A stretch of DNA of 64,000 nucleotides from Halobacterium sp. R2-5 (GTDB lineage: Archaea > Halobacteriota > Halobacteria > Halobacteriales > Halobacteriaceae), in the NCBI RefSeq assembly GCF_011734195.1, contig NZ_JAANTH010000001.1:1240001-1304000 (forward strand), written 5' to 3'. A model generated the notes under the pieces. The model searched no databases. It worked only from the letters and a program-made list of their open reading frames with translations, and was not told the origin of the DNA. A program made the translations under genes and the position numbers. This document shows, piece by piece, positions 13,148 through 34,236 of the stretch (positions within the stretch are counted from its first letter, which is position 1; every line of letters starts with the position of its first letter).

Positions 13148-14515
13148 ATGCGCACCACGACGGCGTTCAGGGTCGTGTTCGCCTCGGCCATCCTCGTGTC
13201 GTCGGCCCTCCTCGTCGCCTCCGCGGTTCCCACAACCGCCGAGAACACGGACGAACAGACCCAATCCGACTGGAGTCTCACCGTCGCCGACGGGTACAAC
13301 ACGAGCAACCCCGGCGAGCGGACCACCGTCGTCACCGCACACGTCACCGGCGGCGACATCTGGCAGTACTCCCTGAACGGCACACTGCTGTACCACGACG
13401 ACACCCACGACGCCTACTGGGACGTCGACCCGGTCCCCAACGAGTCGAACTCGGTCGTGTACGTCGCCACCGACGAAGTCCACAACGAGTCGCTGTGTGA
13501 CCCCGTCGGCGACGACGAGTCCTGCTACCGCCAGATCATCGAGCGCGCGAACCTCACGACCGGCGAGACCGAGGTGCTGTACTCGCGCGTGGACCCGACG
13601 GACTACCGGCAGTGGCACGACGCCGACCGGGTCGGCGACTCGCGGTACGTCGTCGGGGACATGCACGCCGACGAGGTGTTCGTCGTGAACACCACCACCG
13701 GCATCGTCACGTGGGAGTGGAACATGCAGAACCACTTCTCGCTCGATTCGGGCGGGCAGTACCCCGACGACTGGGCGCACATCAACGACGTCGAGCAGCT
13801 CGAAGACGGGCGCATCATGGTGAGTCCCCGCAACCACGACCAGGTGATCTTCCTCGACCCAGAGACCGGCCTCCAGGAAAACTGGACGATCGGCGCGGAC
13901 GACCGCTTCAGCGTGCTCGACGGCCAGCACAACCCGGACTACTTCGACGAGTCCGCGGGCGGGCCCGCCGTGTTGATCGCGGACTCGAACAACAACCGCA
14001 CCATCGAGTACGCGCGGACCGAAGCCGGCGGCTGGGAGCAGTCCTGGGTGTGGCAGGACGAGCGGCTCACGTGGCCGCGCGACGCGGACCGACTGCCGAA
14101 CGGCCACACGCTCATCACCGACACCAGGGGCGGGCGAGTCGTCGAGATAAACGAACAGGGGGAGGTCGTGTGGAACCTGACCCGTGTGGGCCACAGCGAG
14201 GGCGGGTACGCGGCGTACGAGGCCGAGCGACTGAACACGGGTGACGAGAGCGCCGGCGGTGAGAGCGCCGCCTCACTCGGTCTGACCTCGCGAACCGCCC
14301 AGGACGACGAGGACAGCGCCGCGAGAGACGCGAACGCCTCGGACGCCGGACTCGTACCCGAGAGCGTCTCGAACACCGCCAGTGGCGTCGTCCAGGCGCT
14401 GCTCGGCCTCCCCGCCTGGGTGCTGCTCGCGACCATCGCCGCCACCGCGCTGGCGTGGTTCGGCGTCGAACTGTGGCACGACGACGGCGCCATCCAGGGC
14501 GCCCCAAGACGATAG
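13148..14515 (+). CDS. Membrane-anchored arylsulfotransferase-like beta-propeller protein
   Basis: 455 residues from ATG 13148. An N-terminal signal peptide or anchor covers about residues 6-30. Propeller repeats follow, with motifs WAHINDVEQLEDGRIMVSPRN, VLIADSNNNRTIEYA and RDADRLPNGHTLITDTRGGRVVEIN. These W-H-x-N and N-G-x-T/(L/I)-x-(T/S) blades are characteristic of ASST/PQQ-like families found in haloarchaea. A Ser/Ala/Asp-rich linker and one C-terminal membrane helix (about 420-440) end the protein, so the propeller faces outward. Sulfotransferase activity is not assured. It lies 150 bases upstream of the oxidase cluster, in the same direction. Confidence 0.7.
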   Translation: MRTTTAFRVVFASAILVSSALLVASAVPTTAENTDEQTQSDWSLTVADGYNTSNPGERTTVVTAHVTGGDIWQYSLNGTLLYHDDTHDAYWDVDPVPNESNSVVYVATDEVHNESLCDPVGDDESCYRQIIERANLTTGETEVLYSRVDPTDYRQWHDADRVGDSRYVVGDMHADEVFVVNTTTGIVTWEWNMQNHFSLDSGGQYPDDWAHINDVEQLEDGRIMVSPRNHDQVIFLDPETGLQENWTIGADDRFSVLDGQHNPDYFDESAGGPAVLIADSNNNRTIEYARTEAGGWEQSWVWQDERLTWPRDADRLPNGHTLITDTRGGRVVEINEQGEVVWNLTRVGHSEGGYAAYEAERLNTGDESAGGESAASLGLTSRTAQDDEDSAARDANASDAGLVPESVSNTASGVVQALLGLPAWVLLATIAATALAWFGVELWHDDGAIQGAPRR

Positions 14516-14665
14516 AACGGCGGCTCCCGGAAATCGGGTAGCGGCCTGTACCGGCCGACAGTTTCGTTCTCGACTCCGAATAGAGCGACCCGTTGTCAGC
14601 TACTGGTAACCCTGACGAACGCGTTCGGGGCAACTTCCTCCGGGGGTGCGCGACGACGCTCGACT

Positions 14666-14818
14666 ATGTCCAGTGACACGACCGACGGGGACAGCCCGCC
14701 GTGGCCCCAACAGCTCCTCGACAGCGAGTGGCTGCTGGCGGGCGCGGCCATCCTGTACTTCATGGTCTCGTACGTCCTGTGGGGTGTAATCGACATCTTC
14801 ACCGTTCCCGCGGGGTGA
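14666..14818 (+). CDS. Small single-helix membrane subunit of the haem-copper oxidase (CbaD-like)
   Basis: 50 residues (MSSDTTDGDSPPWPQQ ...) with one membrane helix at about residues 22-43 (WLLAGAAILYFMVSYVLWGVI). It ends 4 bases before the start of subunit II, so co-translation with the oxidase genes is very likely. Haloarchaeal ba3-type oxidase clusters carry a comparable tiny subunit. The call rests on size, topology and position, since the sequence itself is too short for a firm family match. Confidence 0.65.
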   Translation: MSSDTTDGDSPPWPQQLLDSEWLLAGAAILYFMVSYVLWGVIDIFTVPAG

Positions 14819-14822
14819 CACG

Positions 14823-15806
14823 ATGGGCGACGACGATCACTCCCCGCTCGACTCCCCGGAGGGCGACTGGTGGAATCAGTCGGTCAACCGCCGGGAGTCC
14901 ATCTGGCTGGGCATCTCGGGCGCGTGGGCGGTGTCGCTGTTCGGCTGGATGGTCGGCTGGACGCAGTTCGGCGAGCAGAACCAGACCGGCGAGACCTACG
15001 AGGTGACCACGGAGCGCTACCGCCAGAAGGTCCAGTCGTTCAAGGACTCGGCGGGCGCGCTCGACGTGGACGGCGAGGAACTGCTCGTGCCGGACGGAAA
15101 CGACGTCTACGTCGGCGCGCTCCAGTGGGGCTGGGACGGCCTCCCGGTCGTGCTGCGCCCGGGCGAGACGTACAAGTTCCACCTCGGCTCCTACGACGTC
15201 CAGCACGGGTTCGGCGTGCGCCCGGAGGGCAACCTCAGCAAGCAGATTTCCCTCCAGATTCTCCCCGGCTACGAGTGGGTGCTGGAGATGTCCTTCGACG
15301 AGACCGGCACCTACCACGTCGTCTGTAACGAGTTCTGTGGCGTCGGCCACCGCTCGATGCACGGCACGTTCGTCGTGCGCGACCACGAGCCGGTCGAGAC
15401 CGGCAGCAGCAACTCGGGCGAGGAATCCGGCGCCGCCTACGACGGCTGGTTCACGAGCGACGCGCGCGGCGGCGCGACCGAGACTTTCGAGGGCTCGCCG
15501 ACGGACGCCACCGACCAGAGCGAGGTCACCGTCGACGTCGGCGCGGAGGGGAACGGCGGGCCGTACGCGTTCGGCCCGACCGCCGTCCAGGTGTCCTCGG
15601 GGACGACGGTGAACTTCGAGTGGGTCTCGGACAACCACAACGTCCTCGTGGAGTCCCAGCCCGACGGCGCGGGCTGGCAGGGCGTCGAGTCCTTCGAGAA
15701 CGAGGGGTACAGCGACTCGGTCACGTTCGAGGAACGGGGCGTCTACACGTACTACTGCGAGCCCCACCTCGGCATGGGGATGAAGGGCGTCGTGGAGGTG
15801 GTCTGA
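14823..15806 (+). CDS. Haem-copper oxidase subunit II fused to a halocyanin (blue-copper) domain
   Basis: 327 residues. One membrane helix (about 26-46) leads to an external CuA domain. The CuA ligands are complete: His128 (DVQHGF) and CNEFCGVGHRSM (Cys168, Cys172, His176, Met179). After a Ser/Gly/Glu linker (about 190-232), a second cupredoxin follows with His272 (NHN), Cys312, His315 and Met318 or Met320 (YYCEPHLGMGM), which is a type-1 copper site of halocyanin type. The fusion puts a blue-copper electron donor on the CuA acceptor. The gene ends 1 base before subunit I begins. Electrons probably flow from the halocyanin to CuA and then to the haems of subunit I. Confidence 0.9.
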   Translation: MGDDDHSPLDSPEGDWWNQSVNRRESIWLGISGAWAVSLFGWMVGWTQFGEQNQTGETYEVTTERYRQKVQSFKDSAGALDVDGEELLVPDGNDVYVGALQWGWDGLPVVLRPGETYKFHLGSYDVQHGFGVRPEGNLSKQISLQILPGYEWVLEMSFDETGTYHVVCNEFCGVGHRSMHGTFVVRDHEPVETGSSNSGEESGAAYDGWFTSDARGGATETFEGSPTDATDQSEVTVDVGAEGNGGPYAFGPTAVQVSSGTTVNFEWVSDNHNVLVESQPDGAGWQGVESFENEGYSDSVTFEERGVYTYYCEPHLGMGMKGVVEVV

Positions 15807-15807
15807 G

Positions 15808-17517
15808 ATGTTCGGATTGAGCACGTTCGAGTACGACAGCGACGGCTTCCGGGAGTGTGGCGTCACGGGGCTCACGATTCACAAGTCCGCCGAGGACCTC
15901 GTGAAACTGTTCGGCGTCACCGCCATCGTCTCGCTGGCGGTCGGCGGCGCGTTCGCGCTCACGGTCGCGATGACCCGCTGGGAGGCGATCGGCTTCCTCG
16001 ACCCCGGGCAGTACTACCGGTTCACGAGCCTGCACGCGTGGTTCATGATCCTGTTCTGGATGGTGTTCATGGAGATCGCCATCCTCTACGTCGGCGGGCC
16101 GTTCGTGCTCGGCCGCCGGCTCTCCGTCCCGAAACTCGGCTGGGCGGGCTACGGCATCATGGTGCTCGGCGGCGGCCTCGCCGTCTACAGCATCGCGACG
16201 TACGAACTCCCGAACCAGGCGCCGTTCTACACGTCGTACGTCCCGCTGCCGTCGCCCGCGCCGTACTTCGCGGGCGCCGTCCTCTTCCTGCTGGGTGCGC
16301 TCGTCGCCGCCGTCCCGTTCTTCGTGACGCTCTGGCACGAGAAACGCGAGCACCCGAGCAAGACGCTGCCGCTCATCACGTTCGGTGCGTTCATCACCGC
16401 CGTCATCGCGCTGGAGGCGCTCGTCGGCGGCATCACCGCGCTCGTCCCCGCGTTCCTCTGGCGCGTCGGCTTCCTCGAACACCTCGACGCGGCGTGGTAC
16501 CGCCAGATGTTCTGGACCATCGGTCACGGCAGCCAGCAGATCAACCTCCTCGCGATGATCACGGTCTGGTACTTCATGACCCACGTCGTCGGGGGCGCCG
16601 AGGTCGCCTCCGAGAAGATCTCCCGCATCGCGTTCGTGCTCTACCTCTTCTTCATCAACCTCGGCGCCGCCCACCACCTGATGTCCGACCCCGCGCTGTC
16701 GTCGTCGTGGCGCATGTGGAACACCTCCTACGCCGCGTACGGCGCGGTCGTCGCGTCGATGATTCACGCGTTCGCCATCCCGGCGGGCCTCGAAGCCGGT
16801 CGCCGGCGGAAGGGCGCGGGCGGCGGCCTCTTCGGCTGGCTGTGGTCCGCCCCCTGGAAGGACCCCGGGTTCTCCTCGACGATTCTGTCCATCATCCTGT
16901 TCGGCTTCCTCGGCGGCATCACCGGCGTGATGATGGGCCAGATGCAGCTCAACATGAGCTGGCACAACAACCTCGCCGTCCCCGGGCACTTCCACGCCAC
17001 CGTCGTCACCGGCACCACGCTCGCGTTCATGGGGCTCGCGTACTACGTCCTCAGACTCGTGTTCGGTCGCGACTGGATCGGCGGCATCCTCGCGTCGATC
17101 CAGCCGTTCTTCTACGCCGGCGCGATGGCCGTCGTCTGCCTCATGATGATGTACCTCGGCCTCCTCTTCGGCGTGCCGCGGCGCCACCCCTCCGTGATGG
17201 ACATCCCCGGGACCGCGTTCGACTTCTCGCCGTCGGCGCCGTTCTTCGCGGTGTTCGGCGTCGCCGCCATCCTCTCCGTCGTCGGCGGCGCGCTGTTCGT
17301 CGTGATCGCGGTCGGCACGCTGGTCGCCGGCGACAGCTTCGACGGCGGCCCCCTCGTCGACGACCCCGCGCTCACCGCGGACGGCGGCGACGGCGAGGTC
17401 CACGAGCAGAGCATGCGCGGGACGTTCGCGCTCACGCTCGTGTTCCTCGCCGTCTTCGTCGTGCTGTACGCGCTGAACTGGTTCCTGCTCTCGAACGTCT
17501 GGCAGATCGGGCCCTGA
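15808..17517 (+). CDS. Haem-copper oxidase superfamily subunit I, annotated type b(o/a)3, lacking the His-Tyr cross-link tyrosine
   Basis: 569 residues with about 13 membrane helices. The low-spin haem ligands are His76 (LHAWF) and His396. The high-spin haem ligand is His394 (VPGHFH). CuB ligands are His240 (WTIGHGSQQIN) and His289-His290 (GAAHHL). In A- and B-family O2 reductases, residue +4 from the first CuB His is the cross-linked Tyr; here it is Gln244. The C-family position in helix VII is also not Tyr. Lack of this Tyr is usual in nitric oxide reductases. The gene follows the CuA-halocyanin subunit directly. Membership of the superfamily is certain; whether it reduces O2 or NO is open. 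Confidence 0.9.
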   Translation: MFGLSTFEYDSDGFRECGVTGLTIHKSAEDLVKLFGVTAIVSLAVGGAFALTVAMTRWEAIGFLDPGQYYRFTSLHAWFMILFWMVFMEIAILYVGGPFVLGRRLSVPKLGWAGYGIMVLGGGLAVYSIATYELPNQAPFYTSYVPLPSPAPYFAGAVLFLLGALVAAVPFFVTLWHEKREHPSKTLPLITFGAFITAVIALEALVGGITALVPAFLWRVGFLEHLDAAWYRQMFWTIGHGSQQINLLAMITVWYFMTHVVGGAEVASEKISRIAFVLYLFFINLGAAHHLMSDPALSSSWRMWNTSYAAYGAVVASMIHAFAIPAGLEAGRRRKGAGGGLFGWLWSAPWKDPGFSSTILSIILFGFLGGITGVMMGQMQLNMSWHNNLAVPGHFHATVVTGTTLAFMGLAYYVLRLVFGRDWIGGILASIQPFFYAGAMAVVCLMMMYLGLLFGVPRRHPSVMDIPGTAFDFSPSAPFFAVFGVAAILSVVGGALFVVIAVGTLVAGDSFDGGPLVDDPALTADGGDGEVHEQSMRGTFALTLVFLAVFVVLYALNWFLLSNVWQIGP

Positions 17518-17524
17518 CTCCCGC

Positions 17525-17534
17525 AAATATATTC
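17525..17534 (+). promoter_or_regulatory. TATA-like element upstream of the oxidase-linked membrane protein
   Basis: The sequence aaatatattc lies between the subunit I stop and the GTG start at 17587. It suggests that the downstream membrane protein can also be transcribed on its own. Confidence 0.4.
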
Positions 17535-17586
17535 GGGACAACCCCCACCCGGTCCGCTCGCGAATCTCCACGCAAGGTGATGCGCC

Positions 17587-18285
17587 GTGTCTAACAGGTC
17601 CGAGCGGGCGTCGCCGTTCTCGGGCGCCATCGCGAGCGCGGTCGGCAGCGGCTGGCGGGCCGCGAAGACCGTCTACTACGCGAACTCGGTGAGCTGGCGG
17701 GTGTTGAAGAGCGGCGCGCTCCTCTTCCTGGGCTTCTTCCTCTGGGCGGGGTCGAACGTCCTCGAGTCGTACGTGGACTGGGGGTTTCTCGACTACACGA
17801 TGGCGTACGGGTTCGTGGTGCTGTTCTACGGGCCGATCCACCACGTCGTCGTGATTCCGCTGGCGCTCCGGTGGCGGCGGTCGTCGGGGCTGCGCCAGCG
17901 CGTCGGGAAGCGGCTCCCGACGGCGATGCTCGCGGTGTTCCTCGCGGTCGTGCTCGTCGCCGGGACGTTCCCCGCGGGCGCGATGACCGTGGACTTCGGG
18001 TCGGCGATGACCGCCGACGGTGCGCCGGACGCCCAGCCGGAGCTGGCGTGCTCGGAGACGGCAGGCGGCGACGCGGTGGCCTGCGAGGTGACGAACGCCG
18101 AAGGCGTCGACCGCGTCGTCGTCACCACCGGGAGCGGCACGGAGCTGCGAGCCGTCGAGGACCCGCCGTACGACTTCACCGTCCGGAAGGACGAGATCGA
18201 GGCGACGATGGACACCAAGCAGTTCACCGTCCACTTCTACGACGAGCACGGCGACCTCCTCCGGCGGTACACCCACCGGCTCTGA
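17587..18285 (+). CDS. Membrane protein downstream of the oxidase genes, function unknown
   Basis: 232 residues from a GTG start (MSNRSERASPFSG). Hydrophobic helices lie at about 42-60, 70-90 and 110-132. They are followed by an external domain of about 95 residues containing two Cys (LACSE, VACEV) that could form a disulfide. I do not recognise a family. Its position, 69 bases after subunit I on the same strand, suggests a role in assembly or function of the oxidase, but it has its own TATA-like element. It is nearly adjacent to the stop of the convergent DMT transporter. Confidence 0.7.
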   Translation: MSNRSERASPFSGAIASAVGSGWRAAKTVYYANSVSWRVLKSGALLFLGFFLWAGSNVLESYVDWGFLDYTMAYGFVVLFYGPIHHVVVIPLALRWRRSSGLRQRVGKRLPTAMLAVFLAVVLVAGTFPAGAMTVDFGSAMTADGAPDAQPELACSETAGGDAVACEVTNAEGVDRVVVTTGSGTELRAVEDPPYDFTVRKDEIEATMDTKQFTVHFYDEHGDLLRRYTHRL

Positions 18286-19314: not shown

Positions 19315-22300
19315 TCAGTCGTCGGCCGGGTCGGGGCCCGCGTTCCCGCCGTCGGTCGCCGCCCCGCGGTCGCCCGCGTCGAAATCGAACTCCTGCTCGG
19401 ACGGCTCGTAGCTCTGGCCCGCCGTCCCGGCGTCGTCGGCGACGTCGAACTGCGCGACGAGCGACTGCAGGGCCTTCGCGGACTGGGAGACGTCCTGGAT
19501 GTTCGTCGTCACCTCGTCGATGGCGGCGGTCTGTTCCTCGGTCGCCGCGGAGACGTTGCTCGCCTCGGCGGCGGACTCCTCGCTCACGCTGGAGACCTCG
19601 TCGACCATCGCGACGACCTCCTCCGTGGAGACCGCCTGGTCCTCGGTCGCGTCCGAGATCTCCTCGACGCCGCGACCGGCGTCGGTGACCGCCTCGGCGA
19701 TGTCGTCGAACATCTCGATGGCCTCGGCGATGGTATCCGAGCCGGTCTCGACGCGGTGTTGCATCGACTGCATGTCTTCGACGGTCTCGTCGGTGCTGGA
19801 CTGGACGTCCTCGATGAGCGCCTCCACCTCGTCGGTGGCGTCGCCGGCCTCCGCGGCCAGCGTCTTGATCTCGTCCGCGACGACCGCGAAGCCCTCACCG
19901 GCTTCGCCGGCGCGCGCCGCCTCGATGGACGCGTTCAACGCGAGCAGGTTCGTCTGCTCGGCGATGTCCGTGATGAGCCCGACGATCTCGTTGATCTCCT
20001 CGATGCGTGAGTCGAGGCGCTCGACCTGCTCGACGGCCTCGTCGGCCTCGGACTCGATGGCGGAAATCTCGTCGGTGGCGTCCGCGGCGTGGTCGCGGCC
20101 GCGGTCCGCAAGCTCGACGGCCTCGTTGGCCGTCGCGACGACGTCCTCCGAGGAGGAGGCGACCTCCTCGATGGTCGCCGAGAGGTCGTTCATCTCGTGG
20201 GAGACCGACTGCAGCTGTTCGGTCTGCTGGTCGGCGCCGCTGGCGATCTGCTCGACGGCCTGGGCGGTCTCCTGGCTCGCCGTCTTGATCTCCTCGGCGC
20301 TCGCGGCGGTCTCGTCGCTCAGCTCCGCGAACTTCCCGGCGACCTCGCGGACCTCGGCGAGGCTGGCTTCGAGCTCCTCGACGCCGGCCTCGAGGTCGGT
20401 CATCACGTCGCCGTACTGGCCGGGCAAGTCGGTGTCGATGTCCTGGTCGAGGTCGCCGTCGCGGAGCTGGCGGCTGACCTCGCCGAGCTGGTCGAAGCTC
20501 CCGGAGAGCTGCTGGACGCCCGCGTCGAGGTCCGCGAGCACCGCGCCGTACTCGCCGGGGAGGTCGGTGTCGACGTCGCTGTCGAGGTCGCCCTCGCGAA
20601 TCCGTCGGCTGGTCCCGCGAATCTCGTCGAAGCCGACCTGCAGGCGGCTGATGCCGCCGTCGAGCTCGGTCATGATGGCGCCGAACTCGCCGGGGAGGTC
20701 GGTGTCGACGTCCTGGTCGAGGTCGCCCCGTTCGAGGCCCGTACTGACGTCCCGCAGCTCGGCGACCTGTTGGCGGAGGTTCCGCCGCATGTCGTCGAAC
20801 GCGTCGACGAGTTCGCCGATCTCGTCGTCCGGCGCGTCGATGTCCGTGCCGCCGTCGAACTGCCCCTGCGACAGCGACGTGGCCTCGTCGCGAACCGCTT
20901 CGATGGGCCGCGAGAAGTACCGCGAGGCGTAGTACCCGAGCGCCACGACGCCGACGATGACCACGCCGAAGAGCAACAGCAGGAGGTTGCGTGCGTCCGT
21001 GGTGCGGTCGTTCAGCGCCTGTGCGAGGGCGTCCGCCGGCCCCGTCACGTCGGTCTCCGGGACGGTCCCGACGAGCGCGAACTGCTTGTCCCCGAACTGC
21101 AGGGGTGCGTACGCGGCGTAGTAGCGCTCGGTCCCGTCCCCGGTCGTGCGCTCGAACGTCCGCATGCCGGACTCTCCGGCGAGAATCGTGTCCGCGGCGT
21201 CGCCGGCGAGCGTGCCGCCGTACGACTCGCTCGTGATGGACGCGCCGGACTCGACGACCGACTCGTCGGGATGGCTGAGGACGGTGCCGTCCCCGTCGAC
21301 GATGCTCAGGTGGCCGGAGTCGCCGACCGTGATGCCGGTCGCGATGTCCGAGATGATGCCGTAGTCGAAGCGCAGCGACACCACGCCCGCGAACTCGCCG
21401 TCGTAGAACACCGGCGTGGCGACGTACACCACCTGCTCGCCGTCGACGGTCTGCACGTCGCTGACGTGGATTTCGCCGTTCCCGAGGGACTCGGTGTCCG
21501 CGTACCAGTCGGTGTCCGCGTAGGACGTGTCCCCGACCGTCTCCGTGGCGACCGTCCCGTCGGCGGTCCGGTGGGCGCGCACGACGCCGCCGCCGGTGTC
21601 GTCGGTCAGCACGACCTCGTCGTACGCGGGTCGCTCCTCGTCGCCCACGGTGACGGTGCGGCTCTCCATGTAGCTCTTGAACGAGTCCCGGATGCCGTCG
21701 CGGGCGTCCTCGACGGCGCTGGTCTGGAGCTCGTAGTAGTAGACGTTCGGCGCGAGCACCCAGTCGAAGTCCTCGTGGTACGTGTACGCGATGAACTTCT
21801 GCTCGACGGGGTTGCCCTCCTGTGTCGTGTCCTCCCAGCCGTACTCCGCGATGCCCCACTCCTCGCCGTGCCGGACGGCGTCGTCGGACTCGACGGTCGA
21901 CTCGATGTCGTCGAACACCGTCAGGCCAGCGTCCTCGCGGAGGCTGTAGCCGTCTTCGAGGCTGTGGTGGGCGACGATGCGCGAGTCGAGGTCGGTCACG
22001 TACGCGTAGCCGGTGTCGCCGATGTACCCCGGCTGCAGCGACTCCGACAGCGTCCCGCTGGGCTGCGTGAAGTCACCGTCCGTGCCGAACAGCCGCTGTT
22101 CGACCTGGTCCTTGACGGCCCGCTGTTCGGTCGCGCTGAGGTCGCTCCACGCCTGCCCGCCGTGCTCCTGGTCGAGAATTTGCTGTTTGGTGGTCTCGAC
22201 GGTGGCGTGCATCTGGAGGGCGACGTGGCCGACCTGCCGCTGGCTCTGCTCCCTGATGAGCTCCATCTCCCCGGCGTTGGCGGCCTCGTAGTTCTGGACG

Positions 22301-22548
22301 GGCGTCGACTCCGACAGCGACCGGGCGTCGACTTTCCGCACGCTCAGGATGTTCTGGAACTCGCTCTGCCGGGATTGGATCGTCCCGTTGAGCTCCCCCG
22401 TGATCTGGTCTTCGAGCTGCGCCGTGCTCTCGTCCTGGGCGTACGAGCCGACTGACTCCATGTTCTGGAGGCCGGCGACCCCGACGACCGACACGGGGAT
22501 CAGCGAGATCGCCAGGCAGAGCGCGATGAGCTTCGTCCGAATCTTCAT
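19315..22548 (-). CDS. Methyl-accepting chemotaxis protein (haloarchaeal transducer) with Cache sensor and HAMP repeat array
   Basis: 1077 residues. Helix 1 (about 7-27) and helix 2 (about 535-555, [20 protein letters not shown]) enclose a large external region with two Cache-like modules; the second ends in [17 protein letters not shown] sequence. After a first HAMP come three tandem HAMP-like units, each with GDLDxDxDTDLPGxxGxxxxxL, spaced exactly 45 residues. The methylation helices and the hairpin tip ([24 protein letters not shown]) are complete. It senses an external small molecule and signals through CheW/CheA to the archaellum. A cheW gene and archaellum genes occur 33 kb downstream. 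The ligand is unknown. Confidence 0.92.
20431..20740 (-). repeat. 135-base in-gene tandem repeat encoding HAMP units
   Basis: On the plus strand the string ggtgtcgaygtc starts at 20431, 20566 and 20701, giving an exact 135-base period. The repeats encode the conserved core of three HAMP-like units (GDLDxDxDTDLPG). The units differ at silent and a few replacement positions, so they are old, not a recent slippage product. Confidence 0.85.
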
Positions 22549-33078: not shown

Positions 33079-34236
33079 CTACGAGAGGATGCCGACGTCG
33101 CGGAGGAGTTCCAGCGTGGGCTGGACGTCCGACAGCGCCTGGAGGTCCAGGTCCGGCGGGGAGAGCTCTTCGATGGTCGGGAGCGGGCCGACCGGCTCGA
33201 CGCCCTCGATCATCGGGAACGCGAACCCGCGCGTGGCGAGGAACTCCTGGGCCTCCGCGGAGAGCAGGTGGCGGACGAACGACTCCGCGAGGTCCGGATT
33301 CTCGGCCCCGTCGAGGACGCTCGCGCCCGCGGTGTTGACGAGCGCGGCGGCGTCGTTCTCCGTGAACGCGAGGTCGATGGGCGCGTCGGGGCTGTCGGCG
33401 ACCATCAGCATCGCGTAGTAGTGGTTACCGAAGCCGGCGCCGATCTCGCCGTTCGTGACGCTCTGCGCGACGCGGTACTCGCTGTCGTAGCGCGCGGGGT
33501 TCTGGTCGAGCATCGAGTTCAGCCACTCGCGGGTGCCGTCGTCGCCGCGGAGCTGGCGCATCGCGGTGACGAACCCGTGGAACGCGCCGTACGTGGGCGC
33601 CCAGCCCATATTGTCCGCGAACCGAGACTCGCTCGCGAACGCGTCGACGCTGGTGGGGAGGTCGGACTCGCCGAACTCGTTCGTGTTGTACGGAATCGCG
33701 CGCGAGCGACCGGCGAGGCCGACCCACTGGTCGGTCGCGAAGCGGTCGTCGGCGACCGCGGAGACGGTGTCGTCGGAGAGGTCGACGGTCGCGCCGTTCT
33801 CCGTGACGTACGCCAGCGAGCCGGCGTCGACCGACCAGAAGACGTCGGCCTGCGTGGTGCCGCTCTCGTACTCCTGGACGATGGAGTTCGCGAGCTGGGA
33901 GGACGGCTGGGTGTCCGTGGTCGGCTCGAAGTCCGGGTAGTACCGGGCGAGGAGGTCGACGAGGGTGGTGTAGCGGCCGCCCTCGCCGCCGCCGAGGTAG
34001 ATAGAGAGCTCGCCTTCGAGGTCGGGGAGTTCTTCGATGGAGGTGCCGCCGGGCGCGGGCCGCCCGGAGACGAGCTCGCCGGAGCCGCGGAAGTCCGCGA
34101 GCGTCGGCTCGTCGTCGTCGCCGCTGCCGCTACCCCCGTCGCCGAGGATGCCCGTACAGCCGGCGAGAGCGGTCGTCGAAGCGACGCCAGCGGCCGCGAG
34201 GAACCGCCGGCGCGTCTGGCTGTGTCGCTGAGTCAT
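33079..34236 (-). CDS. Tat-exported ABC substrate-binding lipoprotein, ferric iron type
   Basis: 385 residues. RRRFLAAAG is a twin-arginine motif and TALAGC gives the lipobox (Cys about 27), so the protein folds inside, is exported by Tat and stays on the membrane. The mature part begins after a Gly/Asp linker and has the periplasmic-binding fold (LSIYLGGGEGGRYTTLVDLLARYYPDFE, ADVFWSVDAGSLAYV, GIGAGFGNHYYAML-like). Tyr residues in the last motif resemble the iron-coordinating Tyr pair of FbpA-like proteins. It is the first gene of the operon and has an iron-box-like palindrome just before its start. Confidence 0.9.
   Translation of the reverse strand: MTQRHSQTRRRFLAAAGVASTTALAGCTGILGDGGSGSGDDDEPTLADFRGSGELVSGRPAPGGTSIEELPDLEGELSIYLGGGEGGRYTTLVDLLARYYPDFEPTTDTQPSSQLANSIVQEYESGTTQADVFWSVDAGSLAYVTENGATVDLSDDTVSAVADDRFATDQWVGLAGRSRAIPYNTNEFGESDLPTSVDAFASESRFADNMGWAPTYGAFHGFVTAMRQLRGDDGTREWLNSMLDQNPARYDSEYRVAQSVTNGEIGAGFGNHYYAMLMVADSPDAPIDLAFTENDAAALVNTAGASVLDGAENPDLAESFVRHLLSAEAQEFLATRGFAFPMIEGVEPVGPLPTIEELSPPDLDLQALSDVQPTLELLRDVGILS

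What the first reader, a model, noticed from the sequence alone, without database searches (positions are those of the whole stretch)
14666..18285. Haem-copper oxidase with CuA-halocyanin fusion but no active-site tyrosine: oxidase or nitric oxide reductase?
Subunit I keeps every metal ligand (His76, His240, His289, His290, His394, His396), but the residue four positions after the first CuB histidine, which is the cross-linked Tyr in A- and B-type O2 reductases, is Gln244 in GHGSQQIN. The C-type Tyr position on helix VII is also not Tyr. Known families without this Tyr are nitric oxide reductases. I recall the same GH-x-x-QQIN pattern in other haloarchaeal proteins named b(o/a)3 oxidase. So this locus, with its own small subunit, a blue-copper donor fused to CuA and an extra membrane protein, may encode a copper-fed NO reductase that is routinely misannotated as a terminal oxidase.
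Basis: partly seen in the sequence, partly recalled or inferred. Interest (0 to 1): 0.8.

Follow-up and report, generated by a model that had tools for sequence, protein, structure and literature searches.

The report
Haloarchaeal NO reductase misread as oxidase
This four-gene operon of a salt-loving archaeon looks like a cytochrome oxidase but carries the active-site signature, relatives, gene partners and regulatory site of a nitric oxide reductase (the known eNOR type), so it probably turns nitric oxide into the greenhouse gas nitrous oxide rather than oxygen into water.

Summary
Subunit I (15808-17517) keeps all six metal-binding His, and Gln244 replaces the cross-linked Tyr. That Gln is the published marker of eNOR, a B-family-derived NO reductase already reported in Natronomonas and other Halobacteria and noted as misannotated as oxidase. 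Tests here agree. All 109 relatives examined have GHxxQQ[IV]N. They form a clade (100/99) apart from Tyr-bearing B-type oxidases. In 292 Halobacteria genomes the gene tracks nitrite reductase NirK: 50/53 carriers against 108/239 non-carriers, within-genus p = 5e-6; the Tyr-bearing B-type oxidase shows no within-genus link. Many copies lie 2-10 kb from nirK. In 18 NirK genomes it is present and qNOR was not found. A CGAA-palindrome stands 50 bp before the operon here and in most close relatives; similar palindromes occur at this genome's nirK, nosZ and qNOR. The complex is IIa + CuA-halocyanin II + I + a conserved Haloarchaea-only membrane protein. Verdict: an eNOR, fed by copper proteins, expressed with denitrification. 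New member of a known kind; new here are the haloarchaeal co-occurrence evidence, the tethered donor and the extra subunit. Activity is not shown. Haloarchaeal surveys still call qNOR the group's only NOR.

The parts
14616..14627 (.). Palindrome CGAACGCGTTCG, 50 bp before the operon's first ATG; likely activator site of the denitrification regulon
   Evidence: at -50/-51 in 10 of 11 loci L133-L143 with varying central bases; 39 such sites in the whole genome; same form at this genome's nirK and nosZ, one-mismatch form at qNOR
14666..14818 (+). Subunit IIa, 50-aa single-helix protein
   Evidence: a counterpart just upstream of subunit II in 19 of 20 haloarchaeal loci examined (the automatic pick for L147 is not convincing); short ORFs at the same place in Thermus and Thermomicrobium; no Pfam match
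14823..15806 (+). Subunit II: CuA cupredoxin domain (Cys-x3-Cys-x3-His-x2-Met) fused to a C-terminal halocyanin (blue copper) domain
   Evidence: halocyanin fused in 10 of 20 haloarchaeal loci, absent in the other 10
15808..17517 (+). Subunit I: haem-copper catalytic subunit with Gln243/Gln244/Asn246 in place of Val/Tyr/Trp; eNOR type
17524..17535 (-). CGAATATATTTG, exact match to the published haloarchaeal denitrification motif CGAAYATDKTYG, 52-63 bp before the third gene
   Evidence: the one exact match in 64 kb; kept in the two nearest relatives only
17587..18285 (+). Third subunit or accessory protein: 3-4 membrane helices plus a C-terminal beta domain with two invariant Cys, and one invariant His; no known family
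   Evidence: in 20 of 20 haloarchaeal loci, none of 84 bacterial ones

Best explanation
The operon encodes an eNOR-type nitric oxide reductase. Electrons from the respiratory chain reach the halocyanin domain of subunit II, pass to its CuA centre, then through the low-spin haem (His76/His396) to the binuclear centre of high-spin haem (His394) and CuB (His240, His289, His290), where two NO are reduced to N2O + H2O. Gln243/Gln244/Asn246 replace the redox-active Tyr and its neighbours; the Tyr is needed to split the O-O bond of O2 but not to couple two NO. Protons are probably taken up through a K-path kept from B-type oxidases (Ser317, Tyr255) with His320 in place of Thr. The operon is probably switched on together with nirK, qNOR and nosZ at low oxygen through the CGAA-palindrome. 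Shown here: sequence, family, distribution, linkage and conserved site. Inferred: substrate, electron and proton route, regulation.
For: Gln at the Tyr position is the published diagnostic of eNOR, with cupredoxin subunit II just upstream and members in Halobacteria (PMC8756737); eNOR is listed among biochemically characterised NORs and as related to B-family oxidases (PMC11388526 citing Murali 2024). Residues invariant in 109 relatives. Tree: haloarchaeal clade 100/100 inside the Gln clade 100/99, apart from Tyr-bearing B-type 94/90. Co-occurrence with NirK 50/53 vs 108/239, p=4e-12, within-genus p=5e-6; the Tyr B-type control shows none within genera, p=0.9. 18 NirK+ genomes have it where qNOR was not found. 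Linkage: 2-10 kb from nirK in about 16 genomes; L148 carries haem O/A synthase - II - I - third - metal ATPase - NirK - blue copper protein - SCO in a genome with no qNOR found. A Thermus homologue (43%) sits with a nirK-like gene, an Rrf2 regulator, a RIC-like domain protein and cytochrome P460. Palindrome at -50 of the operon.
Against: No enzyme assay of any haloarchaeal member was found. The own genome also has a qNOR, so NO reduction is already covered there, and its eNOR is not next to nirK. The overall fold is nearest to ba3 oxidase, not to cNOR/qNOR, though this is as published for eNOR. Genomic association does not exclude side activity with O2. The characterised R. marinus eNOR sequence could not be fetched for direct alignment.
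Confidence: 0.86

Rival explanations
1. It is a true O2 reductase (variant ba3 oxidase) that works without the cross-linked Tyr, perhaps using another residue as the electron/proton donor.
For: Nearest solved fold is ba3 oxidase; all oxidase metal ligands and part of the K-path are kept; databases name such proteins b(o/a)3 or cbb3 oxidase.
Against: No replacement Tyr was seen at the aligned site: Tyr255 is the K-path Tyr that Tyr-bearing B-types also have. The gene tracks NirK within genera while the Tyr B-type oxidase does not. It carries the denitrification-type palindrome, and the host's A- and B-type oxidase loci have none. Three ordinary oxidases are already in the genome.
Confidence: 0.06
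2. An eNOR whose job is to remove NO (from NirK or from the surroundings) at low oxygen, with minor O2 reduction, rather than a respiratory step of denitrification. This is a variant of the best explanation, not an alternative to NO reduction.
For: qNOR coexists in 32 of 50 NirK+ eNOR+ genomes; a paper states that eNOR reduces NO under microoxic conditions; relatives sit near hemerythrin and RIC-like genes in bacteria.
Against: Copper and haem assembly genes nearby, a dedicated donor and CuA look like a respiratory enzyme; 18 genomes pair it with NirK and no qNOR found.
Confidence: 0.3
3. A member of another Tyr-less NOR family (bNOR/CuA-NOR, sNOR, gNOR, cNOR, qNOR).
For: The CuA subunit recalls the Bacillus CuA-NOR.
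Against: Published residue at this position: N in CuA-NOR and sNOR, D in gNOR, E in cNOR/qNOR, Q in eNOR (Table A4); here Q in all relatives. No NorB cytochrome-c-like domain as in the own qNOR.
Confidence: 0.03

Closest known systems
eNOR (Hemp and Gennis 2008; Murali et al. 2024; haloarchaeal members in PMC8756737)
   Same: Gln at the cross-linked Tyr position, all His ligands, cupredoxin subunit II just upstream, descent next to B-family oxidases, occurrence in Halobacteria, misannotation as oxidase
   Different: Here subunit II carries a fused halocyanin domain, and a third membrane protein, found in 20/20 haloarchaeal and 0/84 bacterial loci, belongs to the operon
ba3-type (B-family) oxygen reductase, e.g. 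Thermus ba3 and the host's own B-type enzyme (L003)
   Same: Fold, subunits I/II and a small IIa, six His, Tyr255 and Ser317 of the K-path
   Different: Tyr to Gln, Val to Gln, Trp to Asn, Tyr to Ile/Val, Thr to His at five fixed positions; NirK-linked distribution
Haloarchaeal qNOR (NorZ)
   Same: Likely reaction, and co-occurrence with NirK
   Different: Single chain with a NorB cytochrome-c-like domain, fed by quinol; distant sequence. Stated to be the only NOR of haloarchaea (PMC8400030, PMC8301774), which these data question

Membership tests
eNOR | Gln in place of the cross-linked active-site Tyr (H+4) | tested here: met
   Gln244; invariant in 109 relatives; definition from PMC8756737
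eNOR | Haem-copper catalytic subunit with all metal-binding His | tested here: met
eNOR | Cupredoxin-containing subunit II immediately upstream | tested here: met
   14823-15806, CuA motif
eNOR | Groups with Gln-bearing homologues of Chloroflexota, Pseudomonadota etc., apart from Tyr-bearing B-type oxidases | tested here: met
   100/99
eNOR | Groups with the biochemically characterised R. marinus enzyme | not tested
eNOR | One proton channel | tested here: inconclusive
   Ser317 and Tyr255 kept, His320 invariant; no coordinates or assay
eNOR | NO reductase activity | not testable with these tools
   Needs biochemistry
B-type (ba3) oxygen reductase | Tyr cross-linked to a CuB His | tested here: not met
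   Gln244
bNOR/CuA-NOR and sNOR | Asn at that position | tested here: not met
   Gln; Table A4 of PMC8756737
cNOR/qNOR | Glu at that position; for qNOR a NorB cytochrome-c-like extra domain | tested here: not met
   Gln; Pfam scan shows COX1 only

The most novel reading that the evidence does not exclude
Haloarchaea have a second, overlooked NO-reducing route: an electrogenic eNOR with a covalently tethered blue-copper donor and a new lineage-specific subunit, which is the only respiratory NOR in a sizeable share of NirK-bearing Halobacteria and therefore an important source of N2O in brines.
Probability: 0.5. Interest if true: 0.65.

Novelty: new member of a known kind. Interest (0 to 1): 0.52.

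Why it matters
Haloarchaeal denitrification surveys state that qNOR is the only NO reductase of the group (PMC8400030, PMC8301774). Here 18 of 39 NirK genomes in which no qNOR was found carry this enzyme, so they may not be the NO-releasing partial denitrifiers they seem. Annotation pipelines name such proteins as oxidases, which distorts both O2-respiration and N2O-budget inference in brines. The operon also offers a natural CuA-donor fusion for electron-transfer work and a clean test of why O2 reduction needs the Tyr and NO reduction does not.

Tried and rejected
Direct alignment with R. marinus eNOR: tried through its plasmid as a search centre, not possible. PNAS 2024 paper not held. NCBIfam has no matching eNOR model; only sub-cut-off oxidase hits. 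Structure search of the third protein gave only weak Ig-like hits. The ASST-like gene upstream (13151-14515) was considered as part of the operon and rejected: found in 1 of 20 loci. A second CGAAC-N2-GTTCG site at 33672 lies inside an ORF and is taken as chance. Bacterial neighbourhoods: only 7 of 84 gave a NirK-like hit with a single Thermus seed; not pursued with proper profiles.

Full report
What is there. The window lies in a 2.98 Mb haloarchaeal genome, G000:C1:1240001-1304000. The locus is a compact operon: a 50-aa single-helix protein (IIa, 14666-14818), a CuA subunit II fused to a halocyanin domain (14823-15806), subunit I (15808-17517) and a 232-aa membrane protein (17587-18285). Subunit I matches Pfam COX1 well above cut-off, and its closest solved relatives by sequence are Thermus ba3 chains. 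NCBIfam gives only sub-cut-off matches to oxidase models. The AlphaFold model (pLDDT 81) also matches ba3 oxidase best (E 7e-17, TM about 0.76).

What the Gln means. In PMC8756737 a conserved Gln at the position of the cross-linked Tyr is the stated marker of eNOR, distinguishing it from oxygen reductases (Tyr), cNOR and qNOR (Glu), sNOR and CuA-NOR (Asn) and gNOR (Asp). The same paper says eNOR is known from Natronomonas, clusters throughout other Halobacteria, has its cupredoxin subunit II immediately upstream, and is often misannotated as cytochrome c oxidase. PMC11388526 lists eNOR among biochemically characterised NORs, related to B-family oxidases, citing Murali et al. 2024; that primary paper was not held.

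Relatives. A whole-protein search found the gene in 53 of 292 Halobacteria genomes (59-92% identity). On plasmids, Thermus, Thermomicrobium and Defluviimonas encode full-length relatives at 40-44% identity, while Tyr-bearing B-type oxidases score far lower, mostly 25-30%. A scan of bacterial and archaeal genomes with an alignment gave at least 517 relatives; 80 were kept, from Gemmatimonadota, Pseudomonadota, Nitrospirota, Chloroflexota, Deinococcota and others. Across 30 haloarchaeal and 79 bacterial sequences, Gln243, Gln244, Asn246, Tyr255, Ser317 and His320 do not vary; 16 B-type oxidases have Val, Tyr, Trp, Tyr, Ser (Thr in 2) and Thr there. One scan pattern contained the QQ motif, so conservation in the bacterial set is partly selected; the haloarchaeal set is free of that. 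The maximum-likelihood tree puts the window in a haloarchaeal clade (100/100) inside the Gln clade (100/99), with Tyr-bearing B-types as a separate group (94/90). It lacks cNOR, C-type and R. marinus references.

Link to denitrification. The host genome has two NirK (TIGR02376), a TAT-type NosZ (TIGR04244, 748 bits) and a qNOR with the NorB cytochrome-c-like domain. In the same 292 genomes NirK occurs in 50 of 53 eNOR carriers and 108 of 239 non-carriers (Fisher p=3.8e-12). To control for kinship I permuted NirK labels within genera: p=5e-6, with examples such as 9/9 vs 0/6 in genus g8 and 5/5 vs 1/5 in the window's genus. Genus labels were known only for genomes printed in some list; missing ones mostly lack both genes, which works against the association. 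The Tyr-bearing B-type oxidase shows no within-genus association (p=0.9). Among NirK genomes eNOR is less common where qNOR is present (p=0.03), and 18 carry eNOR where no qNOR was found, some of them single-contig genomes. In about 16 genomes the eNOR and nirK genes lie 2-10 kb apart. In L148 the cluster reads haem O/A synthase, II, I, third protein, heavy-metal ATPase, NirK, blue copper protein, SCO. The Thermus plasmid homologue sits beside a multicopper oxidase with a sub-cut-off NirK match, an Rrf2 regulator, a protein with a RIC-like domain and cytochrome P460.

Regulation. A published motif CGAAYATDKTYG precedes nar, nirK, nor and nos in Haloferax mediterranei (PMC11218638). In this genome the related palindrome CGAAYNNRTTCG occurs 39 times; six copies lie in a 9-kb stretch at nirK, one lies upstream of nosZ, one at 14616-14627 just before the eNOR operon, and none at the A- or B-type oxidase loci. 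Across 20 haloarchaeal loci, 13 have a site with at most one mismatch within 200 bp upstream of IIa (background 8.7% of windows; p about 7e-10, not corrected for kinship). In 10 of the 11 loci L133-L143 it sits 50-51 bp before the start codon with varying centre bases. A second site, an exact match to the published motif, lies before the third gene and is kept only in the two nearest relatives.

Subunits. IIa is found at 19 of 20 haloarchaeal loci and the third protein at 20 of 20. The third protein has no known family; it has 3-4 helices and a C-terminal beta domain, one invariant His and two invariant Cys, and was not found in 84 bacterial loci. The halocyanin fusion is present in 10 of 20 loci, those without nirK close by; nirK-linked loci such as L148 have an unfused subunit II and encode a separate blue copper protein nearby. 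This suggests that the fused domain is the electron donor (inference).

Mechanism and limits. The most likely reaction is 2 NO + 2 e- + 2 H+ to N2O + H2O, electrons entering from halocyanin through CuA. Losing the Tyr fits, since Tyr supplies an electron and a proton for O-O cleavage in oxygen reductases (established knowledge). His320 at the place of the K-path Thr is fixed in the family and may carry protons (inference). No activity has been measured, and whether the role is respiratory or detoxifying is open.

Noticed in passing
L046:11983-13665 and L047:9983-11662 (Thermus thermophilus plasmids): In these two eNOR-like subunits the His that binds the low-spin haem (HFH) is Lys (HFK); the other 77 of 79 bacterial relatives keep His.
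   Followed up: no
window 17587-18285 and 17 aligned relatives (A4): A conserved haloarchaeal membrane protein of unknown family, with an invariant His at a helix and two invariant Cys in its beta domain, always accompanies eNOR.
   Followed up: partly
window 13151-14515: Arylsulfotransferase-like (ASST) membrane protein just upstream; found in only 1 of the 20 eNOR loci.
   Followed up: no
window 19315-22548: 1077-aa dCache/HAMP/MCP chemoreceptor downstream of the operon, kept at one close relative's locus.
   Followed up: no
G000:C2:785693-794556: Six CGAAYNNRTTCG palindromes within 9 kb around nirK, a dense denitrification regulatory island.
   Followed up: partly
292 Halobacteria genomes: 21 genomes have NirK but neither qNOR nor eNOR by these searches; another NO sink or truly partial denitrifiers.
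   Followed up: no
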